Shown: in pieces, positions 21,398 to 36,919 of the stretch
Layout: each line of letters begins with the position of its first letter
How positions within the stretch are numbered: position 1 is the stretch's first letter
Source of the DNA: Bacteroides oleiciplenus YIT 12058
GTDB taxonomy: Bacteria > Bacteroidota > Bacteroidia > Bacteroidales > Bacteroidaceae
Reading direction: 5' to 3'
Assembly: GCF_000315485.1 (NCBI RefSeq)
Contig: NZ_JH992940.1
Coordinates: forward strand, 1,214,164-1,278,163
DNA: 64,000 nt
Notes under the pieces: generated by a model
What the model saw: only the letters and a program-made list of their open reading frames with translations
What the model was told of the DNA's origin: nothing
Database searches by the model: none
Translations under genes and position numbers: made by a program

Positions 21398-22510
21398 TTA
21401 ATGATTATCGGACGCGAAGGTAGGCATTATATTTGAAAGATACAACACCGCCATATCACTATTTGTTCCGATTCGGAAAGGAGGCCCCCAAAGAGACAAT
21501 CCACTGGACACATAGATGTGTGATTTATTCCACTTGCGGTAACCATGACTTTGTTCATACAGTCTGTCGGTCAACCAGCTGATAGGCCATACCTGTCCGT
21601 GGTGTGTGTGCCCACTGAACTGCAAATCTATTCCTAAAGAATCTGTTTTCTTCAAATTATAAGGTTGATGATCCAAAACAACCGTAGGTTTACTATTGTC
21701 TGTTCGCTTTAACAACTCAGGCAAGGAGTGGCGCGAACGGTTGGAACGGTCGTCACGCCCTATTATCTGCATACCATTAGGTAGTGTCACCACGGAATCA
21801 CGCAATAGTTTTATGGGGGTCGTTTTCAAGAAGCGGACACATTCATCAATGCCACTGATATATTCATGATTGCCCGGAACCATGTAAATACCCATCGGAG
21901 CTTTCAGTTCCGCCAATTCTTCCGCCATATTTTCATGGTACAACGGGATGAGGCTATTGTCTATCAAATCACCACCGATAAGTATTAAATCGGGAGTCTG
22001 GGCATTTATCATATCCACATACCGCTTCAGCATAGCTTTTCCCGTTCCATTGCCTAAATGGAGGTCGCTTACGGCAACAATCTTCACTCCTTCACCTTCT
22101 ATGGGTTTGTCGATAGGAATATTTATATTTTTTATCTGCGGATGGAGATAATTATAGTAACCGTACAGGAGCAGGCAGCAGGTAAAACTTAAAGCGTAGC
22201 AAAAGCCATACTTCATTGTCGGCACAAACAGCCTCACCACATCCGTCAGCAACAGAGACAATATCATATACAGCGTAAATACCAACCATACCGAGCCGAC
22301 ACAAAACATTGTTTTCGACAAGGAGACAGGTATCTCTATGTGGCGGGTCAATAGAGCGATTACCAACGAAAATGCCGCCAACCAGAAAAAGACAGACAAC
22401 AGAATCCTCAAAGGCAACGATACTCCGGAAAGCATCTGCAAAGCACGAATAAAGATGTACACGTTACCACCTATATAGCCAAGTATAAATACCAAGAAAA
22501 ATATTCTCAT
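21398..22510 (-). CDS. Membrane-anchored metallophosphoesterase
   Basis: About 370 residues from ATG 22510 (an upstream ATG at 22549 adds 13 residues and is less likely). Four hydrophobic helices fill the first 130 residues, followed by a calcineurin-like phosphoesterase domain: VSDLHLGNG (DxH), IGGDLID (GD), VPGNHEYISG (GNHE), then LDHQP and SGHTHHGQVWP for the remaining metal ligands. Related proteins include YkuE/YaeI-type phosphodiesterases. The exact substrate cannot be read from the sequence. Confidence 0.9.
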   Translation of the reverse strand: MRIFFLVFILGYIGGNVYIFIRALQMLSGVSLPLRILLSVFFWLAAFSLVIALLTRHIEIPVSLSKTMFCVGSVWLVFTLYMILSLLLTDVVRLFVPTMKYGFCYALSFTCCLLLYGYYNYLHPQIKNINIPIDKPIEGEGVKIVAVSDLHLGNGTGKAMLKRYVDMINAQTPDLILIGGDLIDNSLIPLYHENMAEELAELKAPMGIYMVPGNHEYISGIDECVRFLKTTPIKLLRDSVVTLPNGMQIIGRDDRSNRSRHSLPELLKRTDNSKPTVVLDHQPYNLKKTDSLGIDLQFSGHTHHGQVWPISWLTDRLYEQSHGYRKWNKSHIYVSSGLSLWGPPFRIGTNSDMAVLYLSNIMPTFASDNH

Positions 22511-22550
22511 AATCGTTATCAATTTAAATAGGCTCAAAAATATCGTCAAA

Positions 22551-22583
22551 AAGCCAACTAAGTTCCATTGACTCAGTTGGCTT
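22551..22583 (-). terminator. Terminator between DUF4248 and phosphoesterase genes
   Basis: AAGCCAACT (22551-22559) pairs exactly with AGTTGGCTT (22575-22583); on the minus strand the stem is followed by a T run. It ends the leftward DUF4248 transcript. Confidence 0.7.
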
Positions 22584-22624
22584 TATTCTTAATTATGAAT
22601 TAATAACATACCTAACTATAAAGT

Positions 22625-22852
22625 TTAGGGTTCATCCAGATAACGAACAATTATCGAGACTTGCTTAGGAACAAAGGTTCGCGCTCTGGGCGTATAGCCT
22701 GTGTGAAGCAAAGCTGCATAAAGTTCTTTATTCAATTTTATCCAGTGAGTAAGTGTACGAATAGCACAACGCTCAGTTATGTCAGGACAATACAGATGAG
22801 CTAATTCCTTTTTTCTATATGTCCGGATGCGAAACACAGGTTCATCTTCCAT
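22625..22852 (-). CDS. DUF4248 domain protein
   Basis: 75 residues from ATG 22852. The sequence FRIRTYRKKELAHLYCPD, then RTLTHWIKLNKELYAAL, then TPRARTFVPKQVSIIVRYL is the DUF4248 pattern, a small Bacteroidota protein with a helical, HTH-like body that is often found near HU-like genes. Function unknown. A -7-like TATCTTTA lies on the minus strand just upstream (about 22874-22881). Confidence 0.75.
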   Translation of the reverse strand: MEDEPVFRIRTYRKKELAHLYCPDITERCAIRTLTHWIKLNKELYAALLHTGYTPRARTFVPKQVSIIVRYLDEP

Positions 22853-22936
22853 GATTATAAAGCTTAGATTTATTTTGTAAAGATACAACATTCAAAAGGC
22901 GAAATCAAGTTTTCAGAGGGAATAAATTGATTTTGT

Positions 22937-23401
22937 TTATCCCAATGGATTGTCACCAAGATCTCCCTCACCACCTTCATCAGGATCAGGAGTTGTGCCA
23001 CCAGAAACCGCTACCTCTCCAACCATACGCGTCAGGCTGGCATTCCGCAGCATATCCTGAAAAACGGTTCCCGGGCTGAAAATGATTTTTCTACGACGAA
23101 TCGTACTTGTTGTCACATCTTCCAGTTTATCCTGGCTCTTCGCATTAATACCGGGGCGGAAACAGCCGAAATCTCCCAATTGTACGGAAAAGCCTTTGTT
23201 AATATTCAACTTCAAAGTATCAATCAGTGCATCCAACACGAATTTCACAGCACCACTCGGCACCAGACCGACTTTTGTCACCTCCTCACACAGTTCTTTA
23301 AAGTCAATCAACCCAAGTGTACGCGATTCAGCTACAAACTTTTCAGCTTTTGTTTTGTCAAAGCCAAACACTCTTTTTCTTACAACATAACGTAAAGACA
23401 T
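22937..23401 (-). CDS. HU-family DNA-binding protein (HU-CCDC81-like, Bacteroides type)
   Basis: 154 residues. An HU/IHF fold is visible: helices near 25-60 with FVAESRTLGLIDFKELCEEV, then NKGFSVQLGDFGCFRPGI (HU core GxxxxLGxFGxF) and the arm region. The C-terminus is an acidic, Gly-rich tail (GGTTPDPDEGGEGDLGDNP). These single-copy HU variants are typical of Bacteroides. A minus-strand -7 element TATCTTTG at 23455-23462 drives it. Confidence 0.85.
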   Translation of the reverse strand: MSLRYVVRKRVFGFDKTKAEKFVAESRTLGLIDFKELCEEVTKVGLVPSGAVKFVLDALIDTLKLNINKGFSVQLGDFGCFRPGINAKSQDKLEDVTTSTIRRRKIIFSPGTVFQDMLRNASLTRMVGEVAVSGGTTPDPDEGGEGDLGDNPLG

Positions 23402-23454
23402 AATTCTTAAAGTTTAAATGGTTAATAAATTGTTCTTTGTTTGTGATCACGTTG

Positions 23455-23462
23455 CAAAGATA
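23455..23462 (-). promoter_or_regulatory. -7 promoter element of the HU-like gene
   Basis: TATCTTTG followed by C on the minus strand, 54 bases ahead of the start codon at 23401. No clear -33 TTG is seen. The rest of 23402-23670 is AT-rich with no gene. Confidence 0.55.
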
Positions 23463-23670
23463 CTATGCCGTGAAAGCGGGGTGGTGCTTTAACGGTGACT
23501 TAGGTATATATTAGTAGAAAAAAGCTGGATATATTATAGCTAGTAAGTCTCTGAAATATAACAGTATAAGAATACTATAAAAAAAGTATATCATTTTGTA
23601 CAATATCAATTATTCCTATTTTTCGACAGCTTTAACACGCTTTTAGCTTAACAAAGCAATTAAAGGACAG

Positions 23671-24027
23671 CTAATGATACATATTATAAATAAACCTTAG
23701 ACAATATATTTCTATCAGAATGGCAATGCTTAAAATCCAATACCAATTTTTCTTTGTCCACAGAACTTTTAGCCTTAAACAGCGAAAAAGTAATATAACA
23801 ATAAATGGAGACAAGCTAATAAGAGAATAAGCATATATTATCCACGATATTTGTTCTCCATATATACAATCGACAACAAACCATACAACAACAAAAAAGA
23901 CAATAAATACGACAAAAGCTCCTATAAAAAGAAATAAAGGGTTTATATCTCCAAAATTCTTTTTAAGGTCTATACCCATCAATATTAGGGCAGGAAATAA
24001 AATCAATAAAACAGACAGTATATCCAT
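23671..24027 (-). CDS. Four-helix membrane protein, candidate immunity partner of the RHS toxin
   Basis: 118 residues, nearly all in four hydrophobic segments (about 2-18, 31-55, 63-82 and 95-112). I recognise no family. Its start lies one base after the stop of the RHS gene at 24029, so translation is probably coupled. Small genes directly after RHS proteins usually encode immunity proteins that block the C-terminal toxin. A membrane location would suit a toxin that attacks lipids, which matches the lipase-like RHS tail. Identification as immunity is inferred from position only. Confidence 0.6.
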   Translation of the reverse strand: MDILSVLLILFPALILMGIDLKKNFGDINPLFLFIGAFVVFIVFFVVVWFVVDCIYGEQISWIIYAYSLISLSPFIVILLFRCLRLKVLWTKKNWYWILSIAILIEIYCLRFIYNMYH

Positions 24028-24028
24028 A

Positions 24029-27000
24029 TTATTTTTCTCTTATTATATTACCTTTTTCATCAACTCGATACGTACCGGTAGGAAGTCTCCATAATTGATC
24101 TATAAAATCCGTTATGCTATGTCCCTTATGTTCATCGTTATTAAAATAAACTGTTGCCCCCTTGATGGAACCGCTAGGGCTACCCAACAAACGATTATTC
24201 GCTATCATATCGTTTGTATTAGTCACTTGATACGTAGCTACACCTTCAACAGCAGTCTGCTTTGTAGGTTGAAAAGGAGCAAAATCCATTTCAAAGGCAA
24301 TAGAATTTAATGGAATATTATTTTCTACAAAGTATTCTTTCAATGCTTGAATATATCCCTTGGCATATGCTGCACCCATACTATGAGTTAAAATTTTAAT
24401 AGTTTCCTTTATATTGCCCCTTTCGTCACTAATCATATTTACTATTTTCATAGCATCCATCTTACCTTCTTTATACCCATAATCTTTTCTATAGTTGGCA
24501 TTCAATATTTTATTATCTTCCTTTAACGCTTTAAAACCTCCTAAAGCTCCATCTTTATACAAAAATTTATCATCATTTAGTATTTTCATAGCCATGATAT
24601 CAAAGCCCCCCCAATATTTACTAGTACCTCCACTTCCATTGTGAAATCCATTTATAAAAAGTACAAGTTTTCCCTGTTTATCCACTGCATTAACTGGACT
24701 ATTCAAGCAATAAGTATACGGGCTTGTAGAGTAATACTTTTCGCCCATTGGATCCACAACATGCCATCTCCCCAGCGTCGCATCATACATCCTCGCCCCA
24801 TAATCATACCAATCCAGTCCATGCATTCTATCCAATTCCTTTCCATTATACTTATAAGATTGAATACCCGAGGTAGCAGTATTAACTTCAAATAGACCAC
24901 CAAAAGGATAATAATGATTAATCTGCTCAACCGTACCCGTTTGATTTATGACAACACGATTATTTTCCTGATGATCTTTCAGGTAATAATGGTAAGTATG
25001 GACACCACCACTAACCGTCACATAACCTTCTTCAGTAAGAATCTTGCTAAGGCTTTCATTTTCATAGATCACATTACCGCAATAATCAGTTTTATCAGTA
25101 TGAGAAACCTGATTATCAGCTAAATCTACTATCTGCCCCATTGGAACAGAAACATTAGCTATTGCCGTCTTATGGACAACCCGCCGCTTCACGCCATCAG
25201 CACCGTAAAAATAATCGGCACAGTTGCCATTCGTAAATTGCAATGTACTTGGCAAATTTAAACTATTATATTGAACCTTCGATATTTTCTTATCGTAATC
25301 TTGTTCTAAATTTCCATTAGCATCATATTTATACTCTATCCCCGTACTATTTGAACCATCTACAAAGTTAAAGGCACCACTATAAAGAGGGTCAGTAGCA
25401 GCATCATTGGCATATTTCAGTTGATTCCCATCATAAACAATAGTTAAATTATCAATCATACCATAAATAGTACTACTCGTTTTGCCATAACGTTGAAGAT
25501 ATCTGATATTTCCATTCTTATCATAACCTGTAACATTCTCGGAAAAACGCCCAGCATTGGCAGATATAGTAGAACTTTCACCGTATGCAGCATTCTTCAT
25601 ACGATTTAAATTGTCGTAAGTAAATTTATAGCCACGAGTTACATCCTCATCTCCACTTACCCAAGTCATACTACTGATATTTCCGTTATAGTAAGCAGTG
25701 CTGGTACCCGTATTATAATAAAGGTTTTGAGTAAACTTTAAACCATCTATTTTTATGAGCCAATCGCGGATATTATAAGTATAAGTAAGCATATGCCCAG
25801 AACCATGTAGTGACTTTGTATGTAAACGTCCAAAGTTATCATACGTATTGTCAGCCATTGTAACCGTCTTGTTGTTTAGGCTGTACTGTACCTTGATCAC
25901 ACGTTCCGCATGGTCATAACCATAGGTATAAACTTCTGTTTGAGTATCCTTGCCTGCCGCAGAATGAACATGTTGTACAGTCAGGGGTTTTCCTGTAAAA
26001 GTATAGGTCGTGCTAACCGTCTCATACCCGCCCATATGATTACTGGAAACCGACTTTACTACACGTCCTTCATTATCATAATAATTTGCCGAATAGAGTT
26101 TTGCACCATTTTCAATCAAAGTAATAACACTGCCAGTGAGAAAACCTTTACTAGTAGCGCTGACACTGGCATTTACAGCAGGAAAATGGTTATCACCAAC
26201 GAAACCTGTCAATGCTAAAAAATCATATCCATCATAGTAATTTACCATATGCAGAGTGGCAGACGTCAATGTAAAACTGGAAGAATATCCACTATTCCCC
26301 AATCCTGAATTAGTACTTAATCGTATACAACTAACAACCTCCGAAGATGCTGAATCAGTATTGGTATTTTCACACACGCCCTGCACCACCAAACGACGAA
26401 ATTTATCATACAAATAGAATGTCCATTGCTTAGTCGTTCGCTGGTTGCCATCCTGGGAGAATATAAGGTTGTCTGCCATGTCATAAACATACGTGATGGC
26501 CTGTACGCTGGGTAGTTTCTTTTCGATACACCGATTACGTCCATCGTACTTGTATTGGAAAGCATATAAAGCCAAATTTGCGTTTTCCTGATACATGGGC
26601 TGAAGAACAAAACATTGATTGCCGTAATCATCAAAAACATAATAGGTATCATTCGTCAGATTCCCTTCCATCCGACGGATCAGTATGACACGATCCAGTT
26701 TATCGGCGAAAGAATAGCTCACATTGCCATCTTCATCTGTTGTTTTAGTCACCTTGAGCTGGGTAGCAGCATAGTTCCCGTTATCAACCAACGTCCCTGA
26801 AGTATTCACTGAATAGTTAATACAATGGAGCGGAGGAGTGGAAGTATTTGTCAAATATTCCACAGCTACCGGATGCCCGCTATACCAAGCCGCACCGGGA
26901 TCATACTGCTGTACAATACGGTTCAAAGGGGAGGGCTCATAAATGGGCTGGCTATAAGGACGAGAATCATTATCATGATTACCCGGTGCAGCACTTTTAA

Positions 27001-27304
27001 ACGAAGAAGGCGCAAGGTAATCAGAGCTGGCAACTATAGGCAACCAGGTTTTATCCGCCCGTCCCACATCGTCATATTCCTGTAAAGTTACCAAAATGCT
27101 ATTTGCCGGTACCTTATCATTTTCAACCGGTTTATGTACAGTTTGAAATGGACGTCCCAAACCATCATAGTAGACAATCTGCTCAATATATGATTTACCT
27201 GATGTATTCAGCATAGTGCGAGTGCAAATATAATTTTGATTACCCACTTGCGCTATTACTATACTCGAAAGACTAAGTGCTATCAATAAATATAAATATT
27301 TCAT
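24029..27304 (-). CDS. RHS/YD-repeat protein with lipase-like C-terminal domain
   Basis: 1091 residues with a signal peptide (cleavage likely after VIA). Many YD repeats (EYDDVGRADK, YVFDDYGNQ, YDNFGRLHTK, YDKNGNIRYLQR) lead to the RHS core, including NHYYPFGGLFE and GLDWYDYGARMYDATLGRW, ending at DPMGEKYYSTSPYTYCLNSP (about 850). Everything after about residue 880 is not RHS: LVLFINGFHNG resembles a lipase oxyanion loop, ILTHSMGAAYAKGY (Ser near 975) a nucleophile elbow, and later Asp and His (EHKGHS) could complete a triad. So the tail looks like an alpha/beta hydrolase toxin. It follows the partner YD-repeat gene at 27382-30327. Confidence 0.85.
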   Translation of the reverse strand: MKYLYLLIALSLSSIVIAQVGNQNYICTRTMLNTSGKSYIEQIVYYDGLGRPFQTVHKPVENDKVPANSILVTLQEYDDVGRADKTWLPIVASSDYLAPSSFKSAAPGNHDNDSRPYSQPIYEPSPLNRIVQQYDPGAAWYSGHPVAVEYLTNTSTPPLHCINYSVNTSGTLVDNGNYAATQLKVTKTTDEDGNVSYSFADKLDRVILIRRMEGNLTNDTYYVFDDYGNQCFVLQPMYQENANLALYAFQYKYDGRNRCIEKKLPSVQAITYVYDMADNLIFSQDGNQRTTKQWTFYLYDKFRRLVVQGVCENTNTDSASSEVVSCIRLSTNSGLGNSGYSSSFTLTSATLHMVNYYDGYDFLALTGFVGDNHFPAVNASVSATSKGFLTGSVITLIENGAKLYSANYYDNEGRVVKSVSSNHMGGYETVSTTYTFTGKPLTVQHVHSAAGKDTQTEVYTYGYDHAERVIKVQYSLNNKTVTMADNTYDNFGRLHTKSLHGSGHMLTYTYNIRDWLIKIDGLKFTQNLYYNTGTSTAYYNGNISSMTWVSGDEDVTRGYKFTYDNLNRMKNAAYGESSTISANAGRFSENVTGYDKNGNIRYLQRYGKTSSTIYGMIDNLTIVYDGNQLKYANDAATDPLYSGAFNFVDGSNSTGIEYKYDANGNLEQDYDKKISKVQYNSLNLPSTLQFTNGNCADYFYGADGVKRRVVHKTAIANVSVPMGQIVDLADNQVSHTDKTDYCGNVIYENESLSKILTEEGYVTVSGGVHTYHYYLKDHQENNRVVINQTGTVEQINHYYPFGGLFEVNTATSGIQSYKYNGKELDRMHGLDWYDYGARMYDATLGRWHVVDPMGEKYYSTSPYTYCLNSPVNAVDKQGKLVLFINGFHNGSGGTSKYWGGFDIMAMKILNDDKFLYKDGALGGFKALKEDNKILNANYRKDYGYKEGKMDAMKIVNMISDERGNIKETIKILTHSMGAAYAKGYIQALKEYFVENNIPLNSIAFEMDFAPFQPTKQTAVEGVATYQVTNTNDMIANNRLLGSPSGSIKGATVYFNNDEHKGHSITDFIDQLWRLPTGTYRVDEKGNIIREK

Positions 27305-27381
27305 ATCTAACTAATTTAAACGGTAATTACACATCTGACTCAAATATTAAATTCAGCATCTTTCTTCTTTATGCCGAAGCA

Positions 27382-30327
27382 TTAATTAGATCTATAATTA
27401 TAATTGTAGGTCTCAATAACTTTTTCGGTACCATCCGGATATTTAATTGAGATCTGCCGCAAACGATTGAATGAATCATACATATAAATTGTCACCAATC
27501 TGGTAGGAGAAGTAATGGATGAAATACCAACCAATGGTTTGTACTTATACACAGTAACATGCGCATTTACCAAACGAATATCCGTGCATAGATTATCTAT
27601 GCGAGTATCGTATGTTGACGATGACGATAATGACTCCAGAGAAGTGCCCAAAACAGCTTCTACTTGATCAGCGGTAGCATTCTCTATTTTCGCAACAGGA
27701 TACATCCCTTTATATCCCCATAAATACACTGTATTCATCATATTGTCCATGGTTACATACACTGGATTTCCATAACTATCATAGCGATGAAATGTCATTT
27801 GTACCGTTGGCGTATTGTCATCCTTTTGGATCAAAAATTGCGAAGGCTTGATAAAATTAGCACCAAAGTCTTTATAAGTAGTCAATACACTGTTACTCTT
27901 GCCATTTTGGATTATACTTCTCTTCAATGGAAGATTCCGCATTTTTAACGAAATCATTTTTTTACATATATCCAAATCTTTATATTCATCAAACGTGGGA
28001 TAGTATATTTCCTCAACTTGATTGATTCCTGAGCTATTCTTTATAGTATTATTTTTAAGCATACAATTAGAATCATAGGTCAATGACCGAGTGGTAGAGA
28101 CTGTATGACCTTGCCTAATTTCATTTTCTGTTACTGACGTTAGCAACTCTCTCCCCCGTGTAATGTAATAAGTGGCAAACAAAAAAACCGGAAGTCCAAA
28201 GTCTGCGGCAATAAATTCTTCCGTTTGGTGATCATAATCGTTCCTAACCTGAAGATATTTGAATACTTTCAAGCCATGCAATGCTGATGCGGTCCTCTTT
28301 TCATATTGATAGTTAACCGATTTAATCATATCATAGCTTCCATTAACATTTTCATATTCTATTTGAGATGTCAAGTTCCGTTCTTTCCAGAGGCTACCAA
28401 ACTGATACGTATATCGATAGTAATCGGAAGAGCTATCAAAGTTGAATGTTTTCGGCATCGTAGGAGGATAGTAAGCGGGATACAAACTAGGATAAGTTGC
28501 CCTTGGAATATTATAAACGTAAGAATCTGTATTGGGATCCATATAATTATAAACCGTTTTACCCGTATTACTATTTTGATCTCCCCTATATTCTGTTACG
28601 GTTGAATAAAAGATCGGTTGTCCTGCATAATAAGCAGCATCCTGAGGTGCTTCGGAAGAGTATATGCGTTGGCGATAATGGCCATAATAGCTACTGGCAC
28701 TTGGGTTGGAAATACTTCCTGCTACATCCAGATAAATACTTTCAAACCCCCAATATTGTATTGCAGGCGGCATCACTAAACTACCAACTCCATTATTACC
28801 ATACTCAAAAGTACGAAGTTGTTTTTTTCCAAAATCGTCTGTTGTCTTTATCTGTTTAATCCGCAACCCAGGACCTGCTTTAGCAGTATTACCCGAATAA
28901 TATTTGTTGGTTTCATAAATATATTCGGTACTATTCCCGGTTGGATAAATTATTTTTTTTAATACTCCACTCTTTTTTTTAGTCTCATCAGGTTCTCTAT
29001 TGACATCCGAATGTCCTATGGTTGTCAGATGTTGATTAACATTAGCCTGAAATCCAGGAATAAAAAACGAAGAAGAATTACTATTGACATACCCCCAATA
29101 ATCACATTGCTTGGAACTTAAAGAAACCGATGTCGGGTAATACTCAAAACGATAAACATCAGATTTATTTGCCCCAGACACACAACTCACTTGCTCCAAT
29201 TTATAGTTATCAACCATCGTCCGGTCAAGCAAGGAATATAAAAAAACAAATGTTTTCACTACTGATCCATCCATATCCTTTATTTCTATCTTATTTATCT
29301 TACCCCCAGTCTGCTCTATATCAAAAGTGACCTTCCCTGTACCAAAATCTATCTCTTTCAATCTTTTCGGTCTGAAGGTCATCCCCATTGAAGAAGTCTT
29401 ATAATCAGGTGCACCACTAACTTGACCTTGATAACTTTGAGTTATCATATCATTCACTATCATGTTTTCATTTACTATTGTATGCGTAATAGTGCCACCG
29501 GGAACAAGATCTACATTTGTATATGTCAACCGTATAGTATGCTTTCCATCAGCTGACCGGATTTCTTTTAAATACCAGGAAGTATTAGCTGAACTACTGG
29601 TATTACCATAAGGAGAAAATACGCTAGTACTCCCACCATCTCCAAAAATATATTCCGTCCCATTTTCTGCAGTTATGCTAAAACCAAAATCCGTATAATA
29701 TGAACCTGCTAATTTTATTATACTAACAACATTTAAAGATAATGACCTTGGATAACCATCATAGAAAACAAAATTACCGGAAAGTCCAGGTAAAGAATAA
29801 GAATACAAATCATATTCTCCATCCAGACCTTGGCCTAAAGACTCATTACGATCGTAATAAATCCCTGCCAAATACCTAAAGTCTTTTTTAATAGATAATT
29901 CTCCTGCCTCTTTCAATAAAGGTGAAACTGGCTTTATTTCATCCGGAAAACCATAAACGGTTCTCGCTATTGTTCCACCGGCATTCAAAATCCAGCCTAA
30001 ACCGACAGGTCCCGTAACGTCATTGTATCTGCGCCCGCTGGCATGATAATCAATACTTATGGGCAAAGTTAAATCACCGCATGTTACTGTATATAAAGGA
30101 ATGCTGATTTGAGTTAATCCCGTAGAATGATTCACTGCATAATCAACGAACTTAAAAATAGAAGCCACTTCCGGAGAAGGAGGTATAATACGAGGATATT
30201 CAGGATAACTAGCAGAAAGAGCCATAATAGAATCAGCATTACTTTTCTGCCCGTCTTCCCTCTTTAAACTTTCTTGAGAATATACGGATGAACTTATAAC
30301 AAAAAATAAAAAAATGAATCGTCTCAT
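27382..30327 (-). CDS. Large exported YD-repeat-like protein, partner of the RHS protein
   Basis: 981 residues with a signal peptide (cleavage near SSSVYSQ). The N-terminal region (about 35-110) contains SPEVASIFKFVDYAVNHSTG, ISIPLYTVTCGDLTLPISI and DYHASGRRYNDVTGPVGLGW, as in the N-terminal parts of Bacteroidota wall-like RHS partners. The body is beta-rich with diverged YD units, ending with TIYMYDSFNRLRQISIKYPDG. It has no RHS core and no toxin tail, and lies 77 bases ahead of the RHS gene, so the pair is likely made together, perhaps as a shell and its partner. The role is inferred. Confidence 0.75.
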   Translation of the reverse strand: MRRFIFLFFVISSSVYSQESLKREDGQKSNADSIMALSASYPEYPRIIPPSPEVASIFKFVDYAVNHSTGLTQISIPLYTVTCGDLTLPISIDYHASGRRYNDVTGPVGLGWILNAGGTIARTVYGFPDEIKPVSPLLKEAGELSIKKDFRYLAGIYYDRNESLGQGLDGEYDLYSYSLPGLSGNFVFYDGYPRSLSLNVVSIIKLAGSYYTDFGFSITAENGTEYIFGDGGSTSVFSPYGNTSSSANTSWYLKEIRSADGKHTIRLTYTNVDLVPGGTITHTIVNENMIVNDMITQSYQGQVSGAPDYKTSSMGMTFRPKRLKEIDFGTGKVTFDIEQTGGKINKIEIKDMDGSVVKTFVFLYSLLDRTMVDNYKLEQVSCVSGANKSDVYRFEYYPTSVSLSSKQCDYWGYVNSNSSSFFIPGFQANVNQHLTTIGHSDVNREPDETKKKSGVLKKIIYPTGNSTEYIYETNKYYSGNTAKAGPGLRIKQIKTTDDFGKKQLRTFEYGNNGVGSLVMPPAIQYWGFESIYLDVAGSISNPSASSYYGHYRQRIYSSEAPQDAAYYAGQPIFYSTVTEYRGDQNSNTGKTVYNYMDPNTDSYVYNIPRATYPSLYPAYYPPTMPKTFNFDSSSDYYRYTYQFGSLWKERNLTSQIEYENVNGSYDMIKSVNYQYEKRTASALHGLKVFKYLQVRNDYDHQTEEFIAADFGLPVFLFATYYITRGRELLTSVTENEIRQGHTVSTTRSLTYDSNCMLKNNTIKNSSGINQVEEIYYPTFDEYKDLDICKKMISLKMRNLPLKRSIIQNGKSNSVLTTYKDFGANFIKPSQFLIQKDDNTPTVQMTFHRYDSYGNPVYVTMDNMMNTVYLWGYKGMYPVAKIENATADQVEAVLGTSLESLSSSSTYDTRIDNLCTDIRLVNAHVTVYKYKPLVGISSITSPTRLVTIYMYDSFNRLRQISIKYPDGTEKVIETYNYNYRSN

Positions 30328-30362
30328 AGAATGTGTTTTTTAGTATTCATATTTTAAGAGTC

Positions 30363-31520
30363 TCATGGTTTGAAGAATTTCTCCCCATACACTTTCTCAC
30401 CAGCAACTATTTGCAATATATATTCTCCTTTCGAATAACCACTTAGTGAGATTATCTCCCGGCATTTACCTAAACCTTCCGACCTCTTTGAGATATTTGA
30501 TAATTGTCTACCTTGTAAATCAAAAATTATCAATGAAACATCCCCTGACTGTTTCAACGTATAGTTAATTTGTAGATTACCATCATCGCCGATACCGAAG
30601 GAATAACTAACAACATCGTTCCTCCTTCCATTTACACCACCTTCGTCAGTATTCCACCATTCTCGTTCTCTTTTCTCATTACTTACCTCATCACGCCGTT
30701 TTTGATTATCCGTATCATATGATAAATCATAATATTGTTCTTCAGGCAGATAAACAAAAGAGGTCGTGAAATACTTGTGAGCATTTCCAAATCTATAGGT
30801 AGTACTTTTTACCGTTTCAAATACCGGATAACGGTAACCGTCCGCATACCACCGCCAAGTTTCTGTTTCCAAATGAGTGGAATCATTGGATAATAGATAT
30901 TCAATACTATCATGATTCAAAATGAAAGCAAGAGAATCTAATTGCAAAGTGTCCACTGTAGTCAATATTGGAGTCATTCTCTGATGAATGAATCTATGCG
31001 TATAAACACGTAGAACTTTACGCAAAGTATCACCTTCCGGCAAGATCAGCATCCCGGAGGCGTCAGCTGTAATCATACTTTTACCTCGTAAATGAACATC
31101 CAATTTCTCACAATAACGCCCCTTTCCATCAAAATAATCAGTCACTGCACGCCCCTGAAAAACTGGAAAAGTTAAAAGTAATTCCGGTTTCTGATAAGTA
31201 ATGAAAGTAGTAGGATTTTCATAACCCAAACAAAAAAGAGAGTCGCCGGAAGTACGATAGTAATACATGGTACGATGTTCAGTACCAATCACCGTATCAA
31301 CACCTTGTGCCATGTATTTTAATTCATACTTAACCTCCTGAAATTCCAAATCACTGAAATCCCATACTTGTCCAACACCACTTTTTCCTGGCTCGCAGGC
31401 TGCAATCATTCGTTTTACAAGCCAGTCTCCACCTCGGGGTTGGCTGCAAGTTGAATTTAGAGATTGTGCATAGCCTGTCAGAGAGAATAAACTCCCTAAC
31501 AAAAACAATAAAATTCTCAT
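30363..31520 (-). CDS. Exported protein with type IX secretion-like C-terminal domain, RHS locus
   Basis: About 385 residues from ATG 31520 (an earlier in-frame ATG adds 16 residues without a signal sequence). Signal peptide ends near GYAQS. The last 80 residues read as a sorting-type beta domain: NYTLKQSGDVSLIIFDLQGR, then YSKGEYILQIVAGEKVYGEKF. This is the T9SS type A domain pattern, although Bacteroides often carries such domains without an obvious T9SS. The central part is beta-rich with no known motif. It stands between the DUF3244 gene and the YD-repeat gene in one operon. Confidence 0.7.
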   Translation of the reverse strand: MRILLFLLGSLFSLTGYAQSLNSTCSQPRGGDWLVKRMIAACEPGKSGVGQVWDFSDLEFQEVKYELKYMAQGVDTVIGTEHRTMYYYRTSGDSLFCLGYENPTTFITYQKPELLLTFPVFQGRAVTDYFDGKGRYCEKLDVHLRGKSMITADASGMLILPEGDTLRKVLRVYTHRFIHQRMTPILTTVDTLQLDSLAFILNHDSIEYLLSNDSTHLETETWRWYADGYRYPVFETVKSTTYRFGNAHKYFTTSFVYLPEEQYYDLSYDTDNQKRRDEVSNEKREREWWNTDEGGVNGRRNDVVSYSFGIGDDGNLQINYTLKQSGDVSLIIFDLQGRQLSNISKRSEGLGKCREIISLSGYSKGEYILQIVAGEKVYGEKFFKP

Positions 31521-31576
31521 ATCTTCATGTATCGTTAGATTAACTATACTTATATAACAAATAGACAAAAGCCTTC

Positions 31577-31939
31577 CTACACAATCTCTACTACGTAAGA
31601 TTCGCTCAATTCAATTAAAGATATAACCAGAACACTTCCCGTAAAAGTTCCAGAATAAACCTGTTTACCAGACTCAATATCTGTCACAACTACATATTCG
31701 CTTTCCACAGGTTTATCAAAACAAACATAAAGTTTATTATCTTCAATATAACCAGGAACCATTAAAACAGAACGAGTTACACGATCTCTTTTTAACAAAT
31801 GAATACTGGCTGGCTTTCTAGGCTTTTTATTACTAGTTTCAGCGATACTCTTACTTTTGTTCGCAGTAGCCGAAGCGTACATAAAGGTAGGATGTAATAA
31901 AAACAAACTGCCCAATAAAATAAAGAATAGAGTTTTCAT
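31577..31939 (-). CDS. DUF3244-like exported protein
   Basis: 120 residues with a signal peptide (cleavage after MYASA). The C-terminal part, VCFDKPVESEYVVVTDIESG and VYSGTFTGSVLVISL, ending SYVVEIV, fits the small beta-sandwich of DUF3244. Such proteins are common near RHS and TPR regulator genes in Bacteroides; function unknown. Probable first gene of the RHS operon, behind a TAACTTTG promoter element at 31971-31978. Confidence 0.7.
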   Translation of the reverse strand: MKTLFFILLGSLFLLHPTFMYASATANKSKSIAETSNKKPRKPASIHLLKRDRVTRSVLMVPGYIEDNKLYVCFDKPVESEYVVVTDIESGKQVYSGTFTGSVLVISLIELSESYVVEIV

Positions 31940-31970
31940 ATTTTCATGTATTTAAAGATTAACAATGTCT

Positions 31971-31978
31971 CAAAGTTA
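31971..31978 (-). promoter_or_regulatory. -7 promoter element of the RHS operon
   Basis: TAACTTTG on the minus strand, 32 bases ahead of the DUF3244 start at 31939. It is separated from the upstream TPR gene (stop at 32084), so the structural genes can be controlled independently. Confidence 0.55.
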
Positions 31979-32083
31979 GCAACATGAAAGCAAAAAACAT
32001 AATAAAAACGGTAACAACACATTTATATACAGTACTAATTATCAATCAATTACATATTACCCAGTAACAATCTACTATAAATT

Positions 32084-33700
32084 TTAATCGGAAGACTTCA
32101 TTTTCATTCTATAGCGTCTTTGAATCACAATTCTTTTATCCGAATTTCCAAAACATAAGGCAATTGTAAAGTCATCCCAGCCACATAGTGACAAACAGGA
32201 AAATAAGCAGTCATCTTCCGTGTATTTAGGATAAACCTCTTTCAAATATATTATATAGTCCCTATAAATATTTGCAATGGTAGTACGAAGAATATTTTGT
32301 TCTTCTTCAACCAAAACGCGTATTTCTTGCTTCTTTCTGCCTTTCTTTTGAAGACTGAGTTCAGCTATTTTTTTATAAATAGTCGATTTTTCAAAAATAA
32401 GATTACATAGCTTGGCTTTTTCATCAGCCATTTTTCTAATTTCACATTCTTTTTTGGAAAGCGTTTCTCTACCTTTTTCCTGTTCACTCCGCAACGAAGC
32501 TATGTGGTATTGAAGCGTTGCCATATCACGCTCATACCCTAATTGAAGCATATCTTTTCGACGCTTCATCCACAAAATTCCCAATACAGCAAAGAGTACA
32601 ACCAGCACGCAACAAACTATAAGAGAACAATGCCATATCTCCATTCTTATCCTTTCCTTATAAACCTTCATTTCCGCTTCATACTCATAAACTTTCTGTT
32701 TTACTTCCGAATCTGTTTTCAGAAAATAGATAGAATCCATTATAACAGAATAGTCGTTCCAATACTCTGTTGCTTTTTGAAATTGCCCGCTTTCCTCCAT
32801 TACATCTTTTAAGCCATAAAGAGCCAAGGCCTTAGTCTCTATTGTTGTATCAGCCAGTGCCCATTGAAAATAATATAGAGCAGAGTCTAACTTCTCCTTA
32901 TTTATAAATGAATATCCCACCATAATCGCTGCTTTCAATGATAATCTATCATCATAAGCCAAAGAAAGTTTGGCATAAAAAAGAATGGAATCTGTTTCCT
33001 CATAAGTACAGCTCAAATTATGATATGCCGCAGATATCGCTACAGAATCTTGCTGTGCTGATACATACTTTAAATCTTGTTTCATATAATCACGGGCACA
33101 TAATGTATCACCTTCAAGTAAATAGTTCCAACCCATATTACTTATTACAGAAGATATTCCAGCTTTATAACCGCAATGTGTAAAGCATTCCTTTGCTTGC
33201 ACAAACATTTTCATTGCCTTTTCTATAAATAATTGTGAGACATAAAGATTCCCCAAATCCTCATAAATCATACCCTTTATCAGTAATTCTTCCTTATTAG
33301 TATTACCCAACTCTTTTAATGCTGCACAACAACAACCAATAGCTTCTTTACTCATACCCATCTGACGTTGGATACGTTCTTTATACATTAATGCTTTTGC
33401 ATGATTTATCTCACTATCATAATAATTAACAGCTTCATTGATTAAAGAATCGCAAGGCAGGAGAGAAAAATTATTTTTATCTGATGCCTCAGCCAGAAGC
33501 AATCCATAATACATTTGTTCAGCTTTAGACAACTGATTTAAAGGCACTTCTTGCAAAACAGAATAACTACTATCCGGGAAGGAATTCATCAGAGTTTTAG
33601 CACGAAGTAATCGTTGATTTACCTGTTCTCCTCTACTGCAAGAAGTAAATATCAAGAAACCTACGAAGAGACAAAGAATAAAAAACAAACGGTTTGACAT
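32084..33700 (-). CDS. TPR lipoprotein with membrane helix and C-terminal DNA-binding-like domain
   Basis: 538 residues. N-terminal signal with lipobox IFTSC. TPR helices occupy about 30-310 (ALKELGNTNKEELLIKGMIY, KAMKMFVQAKECF, LDSALYYFQWAL). A strong membrane helix lies near 360-385 (LIVCCVLVVLFAVLGILW), followed by a coiled coil and a C-terminal domain with YTEDDCLFSCLSLCGWDD and SDKRIVIQRRYRMKMK, which resembles the HTH part of Bacteroides one-component TPR regulators. It would sense in the periplasm and act in the cytoplasm, most likely on the RHS operon next to it. Confidence 0.75.
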   Translation of the reverse strand: MSNRLFFILCLFVGFLIFTSCSRGEQVNQRLLRAKTLMNSFPDSSYSVLQEVPLNQLSKAEQMYYGLLLAEASDKNNFSLLPCDSLINEAVNYYDSEINHAKALMYKERIQRQMGMSKEAIGCCCAALKELGNTNKEELLIKGMIYEDLGNLYVSQLFIEKAMKMFVQAKECFTHCGYKAGISSVISNMGWNYLLEGDTLCARDYMKQDLKYVSAQQDSVAISAAYHNLSCTYEETDSILFYAKLSLAYDDRLSLKAAIMVGYSFINKEKLDSALYYFQWALADTTIETKALALYGLKDVMEESGQFQKATEYWNDYSVIMDSIYFLKTDSEVKQKVYEYEAEMKVYKERIRMEIWHCSLIVCCVLVVLFAVLGILWMKRRKDMLQLGYERDMATLQYHIASLRSEQEKGRETLSKKECEIRKMADEKAKLCNLIFEKSTIYKKIAELSLQKKGRKKQEIRVLVEEEQNILRTTIANIYRDYIIYLKEVYPKYTEDDCLFSCLSLCGWDDFTIALCFGNSDKRIVIQRRYRMKMKSSD

Positions 33701-33759
33701 ATTAAAAAGGCTAGAAAATAAAAATTAAATAGTAGTGTTCGTCTTATAAATTACAACTA

Positions 33760-34371
33760 TTACCTGCAAATTACATATACCACCGTCTTCCCCATCCCAT
33801 GCTTCGCCAGCACTCCTTCCAGAATGAAATCATTCAGTTCCACAATCGCCTGTTTGCGACTGCGTCCGGTCAACTGTGAATATTGCGCACGATTAATGCA
33901 GGGATACTTCTGCAAATATTCCTGTAAGAGTCTCAAACATTCTGCTTTGGACAAAACGCGGGAAGCATTAGAAGATGCTTCCTGAGCAGGTCGGCGTTCA
34001 AAAGAAATCTTTCCGTTCAGTTCCCGAAAGAACTGCTTGCTAAGACGGAAGTTCAATCCACGCAGAGATACAGATGTCGAGCGAAGTTCTTTCTTATCCA
34101 TCACCCGGCGACTATTCAGAGAGGGAGTGAAATATCCGAGTTCGCCAAACTCCACAGTCCAGCCATTGGCGAGGGAATCACGAAGTTCGTCCGTAAAAGC
34201 TTTCATTGCTCCTTGAAGCAAACTATGACTAATGCCCGTGAAACGATGGACACGGTCGATAAATTCTTCCTGCCCCATAGTGCCTTTAGGGACAAAACGG
34301 GCATACAAAGGTTGAGGTTCGCCGGTGTGTTGTACGTCGGGACTTTCAAAAAGGTCGTAATAAGCGCTCAT
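33760..34371 (-). CDS. HU-family DNA-binding protein (Bacteroides HU-like, with C-terminal extension)
   Basis: 203 residues. Central HU-like core: FIDRVHRFTGISHSLLQGAM, then WTVEFGELGYFTPSLNSRR (the LGxF motif in diverged form). The last 60 residues form a separate winged-helix-like unit: CLRLLQEYLQKYPCINRAQY, SQLTGRSRKQAIVELNDFI, LAKHGMGKTVVYVI. The promoter is at 34567-34574 and the long leader carries a large hairpin. Role unknown; DNA binding is likely. Confidence 0.8.
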   Translation of the reverse strand: MSAYYDLFESPDVQHTGEPQPLYARFVPKGTMGQEEFIDRVHRFTGISHSLLQGAMKAFTDELRDSLANGWTVEFGELGYFTPSLNSRRVMDKKELRSTSVSLRGLNFRLSKQFFRELNGKISFERRPAQEASSNASRVLSKAECLRLLQEYLQKYPCINRAQYSQLTGRSRKQAIVELNDFILEGVLAKHGMGKTVVYVICR

Positions 34372-34462
34372 AGTCTTCTTTTCTTTAATTGATTAATCAA
34401 GTTACCTGTGAAGGCTAAGGCGCTTTTTCGTAAGGACTAAAGACGAAGATAACGAAAGCTTA

Positions 34463-34508
34463 TTCGTCCCTTCATAAGGAACTTTGCGTTCCCTTATGGA
34501 GGGACGAA
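34463..34508 (-). promoter_or_regulatory. Leader hairpin of the HU-like gene with adjacent direct repeats
   Basis: Arms 34463-34482 and 34488-34508 pair almost fully (TTCGTCCC..GGGACGAA outside, CATAA..TTATG inside). It lies between the minus-strand -7 element (34567-34574) and the start codon at 34371. Next to it the unit TATGGAGGGACGAAA recurs in slightly changed form at about 34495-34509, 34518-34532 and 34539-34550. Function unknown. Confidence 0.5.
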
Positions 34509-34566
34509 AAGTACCTTGTGGAGGGACGAAATGTTCCCTATGGTGGAACGCATTAGTATTCGCAGA

Positions 34567-34574
34567 CAAAGGTA
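34567..34574 (-). promoter_or_regulatory. -7 promoter element of the HU-like gene
   Basis: TACCTTTG on the minus strand; predicted start near 34560, giving a leader of about 190 bases. Confidence 0.5.
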
Positions 34575-34615
34575 CTAAATTCTTCTATTGTCCTACGAAA
34601 CCATGCCTAATAAAA

Positions 34616-36163
34616 TCACTGCATCTTTTCAAAGAATTCATGAACAGCCGCTTTCTTAACAGCTTTAATGCTCGCTGCTCCATCTCCCACTTCCACCTCT
34701 TCAAACAAATGGGAAAGAGCACCGAAGCCTTCCGGATCTTTCTCAAGAAGTGAACTATAATAAACTGATGCATCATGTCCCTGATTATCTTCTGGCTTTC
34801 CGGCAAAAGAACCCAGATAATAATTTCCATTAAAAGTGTTACGGGTCGATTTCGTAAGATTAAATGCCGAAGTTTCGGGAGCATAAAAAACATTCTCCGT
34901 AAAAGTAGTATTGTCAGCATAACCGCCCCATGAATCGGCTGTAACCATTTTCCGGTCAATGTGACTGGCAGGCTTTACATTGGCGTGCAAAATATTATTA
35001 TGAATGCGGGTGATTTCACAGGGACCGGCGATATGTATAGTAGGTGAGAAAATTCCTACACGCGTCTTACGTGTACGCACAGCATCGTTTATGCTTATGT
35101 TATATCGAACTATAGTCCCTTTATTTCCTATGTTATCCTCAGGATCAGTTTCTCCTTTTCCGGCATTACAAATCAGGATGAAGCCCCCTTCATTATGGTG
35201 GCTGTAATTGTACTGGATAGTAGTGTTCGTACAATTATAGTCCGAGTCGAACCCTTGTGCATCCCAAGGCGCTTTATGGTCGCTCACTTCATTGAACTGG
35301 ATTACCGTATTATCACAACTCCACGGCCATATGCCGGCTGCCGCTTGGTCAGCAGGCAAAAGGTCTGTGCAATTGCGCATCAGATTATATTCCACTAAAA
35401 CTCCATCGCAGCCGATAGGAACGATTCCATCACCGGGGACTTCTTCTATAAGATTCTTCCGCACAACGGTATTCGTACTCAGATGCCAGTTCTTCCGACT
35501 CCAGGGAGCACTCCAGATAATAGCGTTGCGCTCACATCGACGTATGGCACAATTTTCAATAGTCAGACTATCAAAGACAGAAACAATGCTATCCTTATTC
35601 CATTTATTATGAATCAGAATGCCCGAGCCTCCACCTTCATTCTTAACCAGGCTTCCGTTCACATCATGAATATCCAGGGCATTAAGAATCACATTATGCG
35701 ATGTTCCATAATTCTCACATACCACTTTTACTCCCGTACGATGAGCCAGCCGTTCAGTCCCTTTATTGATGATTTCAAGGTTCTGCAACGTCACATAGTC
35801 TGAATTCTTAATGCAGACTGCGTACAACGAACTGTCGGGAGCGGTGATGCAAGGTTTCTTGCCCGTGCCGTAAGCATCGATAACAATTCTGCAATCAGAA
35901 CGACCTTGTACACTTATCTCAAGAATGCCGAAAAAAACAGAACCACGGCAAAATAATAAACTATCACCTGCTGCCAACCTGATATTCTTTATTTTATCTA
36001 TGTTTTTCCAGGCTTGTCCCTCTGACAATCCATTATTAGCATCATTCCCATTCTCCGAATCAAAGTAATAATTCACGCCCTCTTTTAGAGTTTGCGAATT
36101 GCCACAACCACACAACAAGAATGTTGCAACAACGATAAAAAGAAAAACAATTTGTCTATTCAT
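34616..36163 (-). CDS. Right-handed beta-helix lipoprotein
   Basis: 515 residues with a signal peptide and lipobox LLCGC. The opening YYFDSENGNDANNGLSEGQAWKNIDKI is the usual start of secreted parallel beta-helix proteins. Later repeats VTLQNLEIINKG, DSLTIENCAIRRCERNAI, VVRKNLIEEVPGDGI, VEYNLMRNC, IQFNEVSDHKA and IQYNYSHHNEGG give the coil spacing. Such proteins include polysaccharide lyases and glycosidases, but the catalytic residues cannot be assigned. Isolated gene with its own promoter-like element (TATTTTTG on the minus strand, 36214-36221). Confidence 0.8.
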   Translation of the reverse strand: MNRQIVFLFIVVATFLLCGCGNSQTLKEGVNYYFDSENGNDANNGLSEGQAWKNIDKIKNIRLAAGDSLLFCRGSVFFGILEISVQGRSDCRIVIDAYGTGKKPCITAPDSSLYAVCIKNSDYVTLQNLEIINKGTERLAHRTGVKVVCENYGTSHNVILNALDIHDVNGSLVKNEGGGSGILIHNKWNKDSIVSVFDSLTIENCAIRRCERNAIIWSAPWSRKNWHLSTNTVVRKNLIEEVPGDGIVPIGCDGVLVEYNLMRNCTDLLPADQAAAGIWPWSCDNTVIQFNEVSDHKAPWDAQGFDSDYNCTNTTIQYNYSHHNEGGFILICNAGKGETDPEDNIGNKGTIVRYNISINDAVRTRKTRVGIFSPTIHIAGPCEITRIHNNILHANVKPASHIDRKMVTADSWGGYADNTTFTENVFYAPETSAFNLTKSTRNTFNGNYYLGSFAGKPEDNQGHDASVYYSSLLEKDPEGFGALSHLFEEVEVGDGAASIKAVKKAAVHEFFEKMQ

Positions 36164-36268
36164 AAATTTATATTTTGGATAATGTATGCCTACATGCTAT
36201 TTCTATTTCGTTCCAAAAATACTAAAAAATCAATGATTCGAAAACAGGAAAAGACAGAAAATATTTAT

Positions 36269-36276
36269 ATATTTGT
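36269..36276 (+). promoter_or_regulatory. -7 promoter element ahead of a small lipoprotein gene
   Basis: TATATTTG lies 36 bases before ATG 36312. Confidence 0.5.
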
Positions 36277-36311
36277 AGCATAAGACCAGAAACTTTTAAA
36301 ACAGCAACTAC

Positions 36312-36812
36312 ATGAAAACTAAAACATTATTAGCAGGTGCCGTCATTGCACTATGTGTTTTCTCATCTTGCGGCGCCGCTATGATAGGAGGCGTTACCGC
36401 TGCATCCGTAACTTCTTCTAAAAAAAACACAGAACCACTGTCAGAAGAAGAAATTGCACTTTTGACAAAACGTGTCTACTCAGATCACTTCAACACACTT
36501 TATCCCTACCTTTTGGAACGCCTGCAAGCGAAAGGATGTTATATTTCAAGCAGCGATAAAGCATCAGGAGTCATCACAGCTGAATTTATAGGAATTGAAA
36601 AATACAGAAGATACAATCGGCATTTAAGTTTCCTGCTGATTGAGTGTCCGACAGGAGAGACGGAAGTAAGACTCACCATTTACGAAGACGAATTATACAG
36701 TGATGGTTCTGTAGACATTAATATTCCTACAGTACACAATGTCATACAGCGAGGGATGGTACGTGACAAATCGCTGTATGACTACTGGTTTAAAGTACTT
36801 TTAGAATCCTAA
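36312..36812 (+). CDS. Small lipoprotein, unknown function
   Basis: 166 residues; signal peptide with lipobox VFSSC, followed by a Gly/Ala-rich short linker. The body has LTKRVYSDHFNTLYPYLLERL (helix) and beta-type segments (GVITAEFIG, HLSFLLIECPTGETEVRLTI). No family recognised. Single-gene transcript facing away from the beta-helix gene. Confidence 0.65.
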   Translation: MKTKTLLAGAVIALCVFSSCGAAMIGGVTAASVTSSKKNTEPLSEEEIALLTKRVYSDHFNTLYPYLLERLQAKGCYISSSDKASGVITAEFIGIEKYRRYNRHLSFLLIECPTGETEVRLTIYEDELYSDGSVDINIPTVHNVIQRGMVRDKSLYDYWFKVLLES

Positions 36813-36919
36813 GAGTGCTGGTATCACTGCTTTTACAAAAAACAATTGCTTAGTTCAAACAATAACGAAATGGTATTGATTATTAGACTAAAATATAAAT
36901 TCATCTTTTTCTTTGATAT

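What the first reader, a model, noticed from the sequence alone, without database searches (positions are those of the whole stretch)
23671..27304. RHS protein with a lipase-like tail and a coupled membrane protein: candidate toxin/immunity pair
The RHS core ends near residue 880 and the last 210 residues are unrelated to it: an oxyanion-like INGFHNG, a nucleophile elbow THSMGA (Ser about 975) and a later His. One base after the stop a 118-residue, four-helix protein starts. RHS tails are commonly toxins with an immunity gene just after; a membrane immunity protein fits a lipid-attacking toxin.
Basis: partly seen in the sequence, partly recalled or inferred. Interest (0 to 1): 0.7.

Follow-up and report, generated by a model that had tools for sequence, protein, structure and literature searches.

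The report
RHS lipase toxin with membrane immunity
A Bacteroides-like genome carries a large, probably secreted protein ending in a lipase-like toxin domain, followed at once by a small membrane protein that very probably protects the cell from it, and a close relative has kept only the protector.

Summary
The 1091-aa RHS protein (24029-27304, minus) has an RHS-associated core at residues 798-878. Its tail (875-1091) is predicted to be an alpha/beta hydrolase; the best structural matches are lipases (B. subtilis LipA, Z 10.7). Ser975, Asp1032 and His1062 are the likely triad. The tail matches no Pfam family. I collected 21 related RHS tails across Bacteroidota; 20 are followed by a small membrane-anchored gene (14 multi-TM, 1 weakly scored TM, 5 lipoproteins). 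Other RHS tails of the genus have a multi-TM partner in 10 of 69 distinct cases. The partners fall into about 15 families. In the close relative G411 the same locus lacks 9.7 kb including the toxin, but keeps the 118-aa gene intact (351 of 357 nt identical), flush with the last codons of the missing toxin. Another genome carries relatives of two lipase partners side by side in an RHS array. This is a new member of a known kind (RHS polymorphic toxin with lipase-like tail). Delivery is unsolved: the T6SS tube protein TssD was not found in the genome; a T9SS SprA is present but most RHS-positive genomes of the genus lack one.

The parts
24029..27304 (-). RHS polymorphic toxin gene, 1091 aa
27248..27304 (-). 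probable Sec signal peptide (residues 1 to about 19)
   Evidence: read by eye from the sequence; no signal-peptide program was run
26867..27220 (-). DUF6443 (PF20041), residues 29-146
   Evidence: E 7.2e-28
24671..24913 (-). RHS-associated core (TIGR03696), residues 798-878
   Evidence: 64.2 bits
24029..24682 (-). lipase-like alpha/beta hydrolase tail, residues 875-1091 plus stop
24380..24382 (-). Ser975, predicted nucleophile (THSMG)
   Evidence: invariant in 10 of 10 aligned tails
24209..24211 (-). Asp1032, candidate acid of the triad
   Evidence: aligned Asp in 8 of 10 tails; inferred
24119..24121 (-). His1062, candidate His of the triad
   Evidence: a His in this region in 10 of 10 tails, in the same HSI motif in 4; inferred
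23671..24027 (-). 118-aa four-helix membrane protein, predicted immunity protein
   Evidence: kept alone in G411
27382..30327 (-). 981-aa RHS-type partner protein; homologous to the N-terminal half of a 2076-aa fused RHS protein elsewhere in the genome
   Evidence: 26% identity, E 4e-50
30363..31568 (-). 401-aa operon member with marginal type IX sorting-domain match (just below cut-off)
31577..31939 (-). 120-aa operon member, marginal DUF3244 match (below cut-off)
24038..33774 (.). segment absent from the syntenic locus of the close relative G411 (9.7 kb, toxin operon)

Best explanation
A toxin/immunity pair of the RHS polymorphic toxin kind. The RHS protein, with its 981-aa RHS-type partner, is inferred to be exported by Sec and to carry its C-terminal domain in an RHS shell. 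The domain is released after the RHS-associated core and acts in a competitor's envelope as a serine lipase or phospholipase (Ser975-Asp1032-His1062). The 118-aa polytopic protein made from the next gene sits in the producer's membrane and neutralises the enzyme there. Shown here: gene order and spacing, the RHS core, the lipase fold prediction, recurrence of the tail with membrane-anchored partners, and presence of the small gene without the toxin in a relative. Inferred: export, release, substrate, target compartment, and that protection works by blocking the enzyme.
For: RHS core directly before the tail. Other RHS proteins of the same genome have other tails and other small genes. Predicted alpha/beta hydrolase fold; five of the six weak profile matches in the PDB are lipases (best E 0.025). 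Of 21 RHS tails of this family, 20 are followed by a small TM or lipoprotein gene, 18 of 21 within 35 nt of the stop. Multi-TM partners: 14 of 21 here against 10 of 69 distinct other RHS tails of the genus, Fisher p 1e-5 (12 of 77 with repeated tails counted); within the genus 6 of 6 here. In G411 the locus matches at 97.1% and 95.0% on the two sides but lacks 24038-33774, while the small gene is intact with 6 of 357 nt different. In G163 a homologue of the partner of the genome's second lipase tail (79 aa, E 1.8e-13) lies 3 nt from a relative of the 118-aa protein in an RHS array. GC falls toward the tail and small gene.
Against: No activity was measured. The model has modest confidence (mean pLDDT 62.9, 72 of 217 residues under 50). 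Asp and His are not strictly aligned across the family. One family member (L049) has no small gene after it, and five have lipoproteins instead. Lipoprotein-like partners are also common after other RHS tails (17 of 69), so only the multi-TM excess is telling. The small gene in G411 shows too few changes (4 nonsynonymous, 2 synonymous) to demonstrate purifying selection. The 21 tails are homologous to each other, so the Fisher test overstates independence, and the control comes from one genus while the lipase set spans the phylum.
Confidence: 0.82

Rival explanations
1. The tail is a toxin with an alpha/beta hydrolase fold that does not attack membrane lipids (for example a thioesterase, a peptidase, or an esterase acting on peptidoglycan or lipoproteins); the membrane partner is still its immunity protein.
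For: Alpha/beta hydrolases have many substrates. Pfam near-misses of single family members include Thioesterase (3 of 10) as well as PGAP1 (3) and Lipase_3 (2), all weak, and thioesterases are among the structural neighbours. In the control set, multi-TM partners also follow tails that by eye look like NlpC/P60-type enzymes or glycine-rich membrane-active tails.
Against: The best structural matches are true lipases (LipA, Lip_vut1, A. fulgidus lipase), and five of six weak PDB sequence matches of the profile are lipases.
Confidence: 0.22
2. The RHS protein is a surface or scavenging lipase of the producer, not an antagonism toxin; the small gene is an unrelated or chaperone-like membrane protein.
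For: Secreted lipases are common; the protein seems to have a Sec signal by eye (general knowledge).
Against: The lipase domain sits exactly where RHS proteins of the same genome carry other tails. Partner genes of related tails mostly show no similarity to each other, unlike a chaperone. The small gene is present without the enzyme in G411, and relatives of two partners lie side by side without a lipase tail in G163.
Confidence: 0.07
3. The 118-aa gene is a chance neighbour: a resident chromosomal membrane gene beside which an RHS operon was inserted in this lineage.
For: Relatives of the 118-aa protein (28-30% identity for the two compared) lie at a conserved non-RHS locus in five genomes. 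The G411 state could be ancestral.
Against: 20 of 21 family tails have a small membrane-anchored gene after them. Insertion would have to end within about 10 nt of the start of the small gene. A relative of this protein and one of the other lipase partner are neighbours in G163.
Confidence: 0.08

Closest known systems
Tox-ABhydrolase-3 and -1 of Zhang et al. 2012 (PMC3482391; passages read)
   Same: Alpha/beta hydrolase, lipase-like tails of RHS and other polymorphic toxins, listed in Bacteroidetes too, proposed to disrupt membranes
   Different: Tox-ABhydrolase-3 is listed with GHSxG and with Imm66/Imm69 (mostly alpha; alpha+beta). Here the window tail has THSMG and only 2 of the 19 family tails whose elbow is present (L049, L051) have GHSxG, so a distant link is not excluded; partners here are TM proteins or lipoproteins. 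Tox-ABhydrolase-1 is Pfam DUF2235, which none of 10 members matches
RHS protein with DUF2974 hydrolase domain in the B. fragilis T6SS region (AKA51715.1; PMC11854122, passages read)
   Same: Bacteroides RHS protein with a hydrolase tail proposed as an effector
   Different: Encoded in a T6SS variable region; here TssD was not found in the genome and no DUF2974 match appeared at E up to 0.1 in 10 of 10 tails
TANFOR/BaCT polymorphic toxins of Bacteroidetes (PMC7073777; passages read)
   Same: Bacteroidetes polymorphic toxins with diverse downstream immunity genes; T9SS proposed for export
   Different: TANFOR N-terminus and DNase toxin there; DUF6443/RHS and lipase-like tail here
Type VI lipase effectors (Tle families) and their immunity proteins (recalled; the Nature 2013 paper was seen only as a reference)
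   Same: Antibacterial lipases with a neutralising partner in the envelope
   Different: T6SS-delivered there; partner proteins here are mostly polytopic membrane proteins
Orphan immunity genes of gut Bacteroidales (PMC12247911; listing and passages)
   Same: Immunity gene found without its toxin
   Different: Those protect against T6SS effectors and lie partly in recombinase-linked rAID systems; here an RHS locus without its toxin

Membership tests
RHS polymorphic toxin/immunity system | RHS repeats with RHS-associated core directly before a variable C-terminal domain | tested here: met
   TIGR03696 at 798-878, RHS_repeat PF05593
RHS polymorphic toxin/immunity system | Core conserved, tail exchanged among paralogues | tested here: met
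   Of 11 other own-genome matches 6 end at residues 879-896, one reaches 1045 because its tail is related, the rest are fragments ending earlier; other tails seen
RHS polymorphic toxin/immunity system | Small gene immediately downstream, changing with the tail | tested here: met
RHS polymorphic toxin/immunity system | Tail is toxic and the downstream protein neutralises it | not testable with these tools
   needs expression in a laboratory strain
Alpha/beta hydrolase, lipase type | Predicted fold | tested here: met
   Foldseek E 5.1e-5 to 2zyr; VIA Z 10.7, rmsd 3.4, 156 aligned to LipA 1i6w; model pLDDT 62.9
Alpha/beta hydrolase, lipase type | Nucleophile elbow with invariant Ser and following Gly | tested here: met
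   Ser101 and Gly103 of the tail invariant in 10 of 10; the residue two before Ser is mostly T or S, not always G
Alpha/beta hydrolase, lipase type | Asp and His completing the triad | tested here: inconclusive
   Asp aligned in 8 of 10; His present in the region in 10 of 10 but in one motif in only 4
Alpha/beta hydrolase, lipase type | Lipid-hydrolysing activity | not testable with these tools
   needs enzyme assay
Tox-ABhydrolase-3 (Zhang 2012) | GHSxG motif | tested here: inconclusive
   not met by the window tail (THSMG) nor by any of 10 tails in A2, but met by 2 wider family members, L049 and L051; motif from the paper's table
Tox-ABhydrolase-3 (Zhang 2012) | Imm66 or Imm69 partner | not tested
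   the 118-aa protein has no significant Pfam or NCBIfam match, but these two families were not compared by name
Tox-ABhydrolase-1 (DUF2235) | Match to Pfam DUF2235 | tested here: not met
   no match at E up to 0.1 in 10 of 10 tails
T6SS effector | T6SS in the same genome | tested here: not met
   TssD (PF17642) not found in the own genome, found in 14 of 99 genus genomes in the same search; other T6SS genes not searched
T9SS cargo | C-terminal sorting domain on the RHS protein | tested here: not met
   none in P0001; a below-cut-off match only on the neighbour 30363-31568
T9SS cargo | T9SS translocon in the genome | tested here: met
   SprA full length; but 62 of 86 RHS-positive genus genomes have no SprA match over the cut-off

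The most novel reading that the evidence does not exclude
One lipase-toxin family of Bacteroidota has repeatedly been paired with unrelated small polytopic membrane proteins. They may protect not by plugging the enzyme's active site but by acting at the membrane (shielding or remodelling the lipid surface the enzyme needs), and some, such as the 118-aa family, have become free-standing chromosomal defence genes in species without the toxin. The RHS/RHS-partner pair would leave the cell without a T6SS.
Probability: 0.15. Interest if true: 0.7.

Novelty: new member of a known kind. Interest (0 to 1): 0.45.

Why it matters
It adds a lipase-like toxin family without a Pfam or NCBIfam name, with about fifteen partner families, to the RHS weapons of Bacteroidota. 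The G411 locus is a natural experiment: toxin absent, protector present. That makes immunity directly testable between two closely related species. The pair also points to the open question of how Sec-type RHS proteins reach their targets in a genome where the T6SS tube protein was not found.

Tried and rejected
Sequence-only searches of the tail gave nothing of use: Pfam, NCBIfam, PADLOC and PDB, plasmids and phages, the first genome-contig scan. A scan of viral contigs with the ten-tail profile found no relative. Profiles of related tails were what opened the family.

T9SS export as a rule was considered and not supported. RHS and SprA co-occur somewhat more than expected in the genus (both in 24 of 157, p 0.010, taking the two samples of 157 genomes as the same set), but 62 of 86 RHS-positive genomes lack a SprA over the cut-off, and genome size was not corrected for.

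T6SS delivery was considered: TssD was not found in the own genome.

A common origin of the TM partners was tested by blastp and phmmer and once by profile-profile comparison (118-aa family against the Chryseobacterium-type family, probability 1.1). Apart from the families named in the report no relation was found at E 1e-3 among the 21; weak blastp links (E 0.007-0.008, composition correction off) join the second L032 partner with the dropped L050 row and L044 with a control partner, and the dropped L050 row with that control partner at 1.5e-6. Short hydrophobic proteins can hide homology.

Selection on the small gene in G411 is inconclusive: 6 differences.

A tblastn match of a lipase tail (L044) in G163 was rejected: it spans the RHS core and another tail type, and the profile finds nothing there.

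Rows dropped before the counts: L055 (hydrolase ORF without an RHS core that I recognised by eye) and the second L050 tail (hydrolase-like, not matched by the profile) from the 23 rows; L056, a plain hydrolase, was never counted. Among the 21, L026 and L046 are broken or short tails and L045's small gene runs off its contig. In the control, two tails of 12 aa were dropped from 79 rows (77 left, 69 distinct), one tail running off a contig was skipped, and 4 of 50 control loci gave no core by my pattern. TM and lipoprotein calls come from a simple hydropathy and lipobox script with recalled rules, not a trained predictor.
Full report
Observation. The two genes are as described. The RHS gene at 24029-27304 (-) codes for 1091 aa with DUF6443 (29-146), RHS repeats and the RHS-associated core (798-878). 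The tail begins at residue 875-879. Ser975 is in THSMGA, and candidate Asp1032 and His1062 follow. The 118-aa gene starts one base after the stop and has four predicted hydrophobic helices. GC falls 39, 33, 28% from the gene before the tail to tail to small gene.

Surroundings. Upstream in the same direction lie a 981-aa RHS-type protein, a 401-aa protein with a below-cut-off T9SS sorting-domain match, and a 120-aa protein. The 981-aa protein is homologous (26%, E 4e-50) to the N-terminal half of a 2076-aa fused RHS protein elsewhere in the genome, whose C-terminal half is homologous to the window RHS protein, so the pair is likely one functional unit. The genome has several RHS loci with other tails and other small genes. 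A second one, on contig C2, has a related lipase-like tail (about 25% identity) followed by a 164-aa four-helix protein.

Family of tails. With the single sequence 3 of 301 family genomes gave a match, own genome included. With profiles, matches appeared in 5 of 158 genus genomes and 11 of 395 phylum genomes, own included in both; two of the latter 11 (L055, L056) are not counted as RHS tails. Five named loci came from genome contigs: Saprospiraceae, Bacteroides sp. Marseille-P3684 (the same place as G008), a Bacteroidales bin and two Chryseobacterium. In the ten-tail alignment G4, F9, N11, G12, R65, G69, S101, G103, G109 and L114 are invariant. The family has no Pfam home. Matches of single members at E up to 0.1 are Thioesterase, PGAP1 and Lipase_3 (best E 0.0033, 0.013, 0.059), plus Tubulin and CshA_repeat, which I take as chance. 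Five of six weak PDB profile matches are lipases (E 0.025-0.63), the sixth a sortase. The elbow is mostly THSxG or SHSxG; GYSMG in L045 and GHSxG in L049 and L051.

Structure. AlphaFold2 on seven tails gave pLDDT 62.9 and pTM 0.69, with the Ser at the turn between the strand 95-100 and the helix 103-120. Foldseek's best five are A. fulgidus lipase (E 5.1e-5 to 5.6e-4). Of the 50 VIA rows 43 name a lipase, phospholipase, esterase, thioesterase or hydrolase and 7 have titles that do not say; the list is led by rumen lipase Lip_vut1 (Z 10.8, rmsd 3.3, 151 aligned) and B. subtilis LipA (Z 10.7, rmsd 3.4, 156 aligned).

Partners. Of 23 rows examined, 21 are RHS tails matched by the profile. Their next genes are multi-TM in 14, one weakly scored TM, lipoprotein in 5 and absent in 1 (L049). 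Within the window's genus all six are multi-TM (window, L025, L026, L044, L045, L046; in L026 and L046 the tail itself is broken or short, and in L045 the small gene runs off the contig). The control is 77 other RHS tails of the genus, 69 of them distinct; the 77 form 38 clusters; none matches the lipase profile. Of the 69, 10 have multi-TM partners, 17 lipoprotein-like, 8 an N-terminal hydrophobic stretch only, 2 a single TM, 31 soluble and 1 none. Fisher p is 1e-5 for multi-TM, with the caveat that family members are not independent. By phmmer at E 1e-3 the partners fall into about 12 TM and 3 lipoprotein families; the Chryseobacterium-type one (L035, L036, L047, L048) and one lipoprotein family (L032, L053; L052 by blastp) have several members.

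Toxin absent, protector present. The relative G411 matches the window on both sides: 21434-24037 at 97.1% and 33775-36840 at 95.0%, but 24038-33774 is missing. The match ends in the last three codons of the toxin gene; the 118-aa gene follows intact, with 6 of 357 nt different, 4 of them changing residues. Deletion is more parsimonious than an insertion ending exactly there, but either way the small gene exists without the toxin. Relatives of the 118-aa protein occur in 8 of 157 genus genomes. In G121, G135, G163, G429 (two copies, one split by a transposase-like ORF) and G431 they are orphans beside a 490-aa (484-aa in G431) multi-TM membrane protein and a 242-aa regulator-like gene, with no RHS gene noticed in the stretch read. 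In G163 a 96-aa relative lies 3 nt from a 79-aa homologue of the other lipase partner, in an RHS array in which the profile finds no lipase tail. The G416 hit is weak and no ORF there matched. This is the pattern of orphan immunity.

Delivery. P0001 carries no T9SS sorting domain. TssD was not found in the genome while found in 14 of 99 genus genomes. SprA is present, but 62 of 86 RHS-positive genus genomes have none over the cut-off. The route out of the cell is therefore open.

Known or new. Lipase-like tails on polymorphic toxins with RHS repeats were predicted in 2012 (PMC3482391, passages), and an RHS/DUF2974 hydrolase effector is reported for B. fragilis (PMC11854122, passages). The present family mostly lacks the GHSxG motif and has no DUF2235 or DUF2974 match (10 of 10 members scanned), and its partners are membrane proteins or lipoproteins. 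A distant link to Tox-ABhydrolase-3 is not excluded. In the library searched I saw no paper describing this pair; I saw listings and, for five papers, passages. Verdict: new member of a known kind, with a good natural test case.

Noticed in passing
G000:C3:715307-722575 (locus L139): The genome encodes a full-length SprA, the T9SS translocon; 32 of 157 genus genomes score over the cut-off.
   Followed up: partly
22937-23401 and 33760-34371: Two genes that by eye look like HU-type DNA-binding proteins flank the RHS operon; the segment missing in G411 begins just inside the end of the second one.
   Followed up: no
L023 and L025 (own genome): RHS arrays with several truncated RHS ends, each with its own small gene: probably displaced tail cassettes.
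   Followed up: no
L025:9901-10395: The 164-aa partner of the second lipase tail looks by eye like a duplication of the 79-aa protein found in G163 (L154:7551-7790); homology by phmmer.
   Followed up: partly
L156:7041-8305: An orphan relative of the 118-aa gene is split by a transposase-like ORF in G429.
   Followed up: no
L050:2289-3534: A neighbouring RHS tail with a GYSYGG elbow, not matched by the profile, also has a multi-TM partner (141 aa): perhaps a second lipase-like family.
   Followed up: no
L071 and L102 (other RHS tails, the same place): A glycine-rich hydrophobic tail with a two-helix TM partner; it looks like a membrane-active toxin.
   Followed up: no
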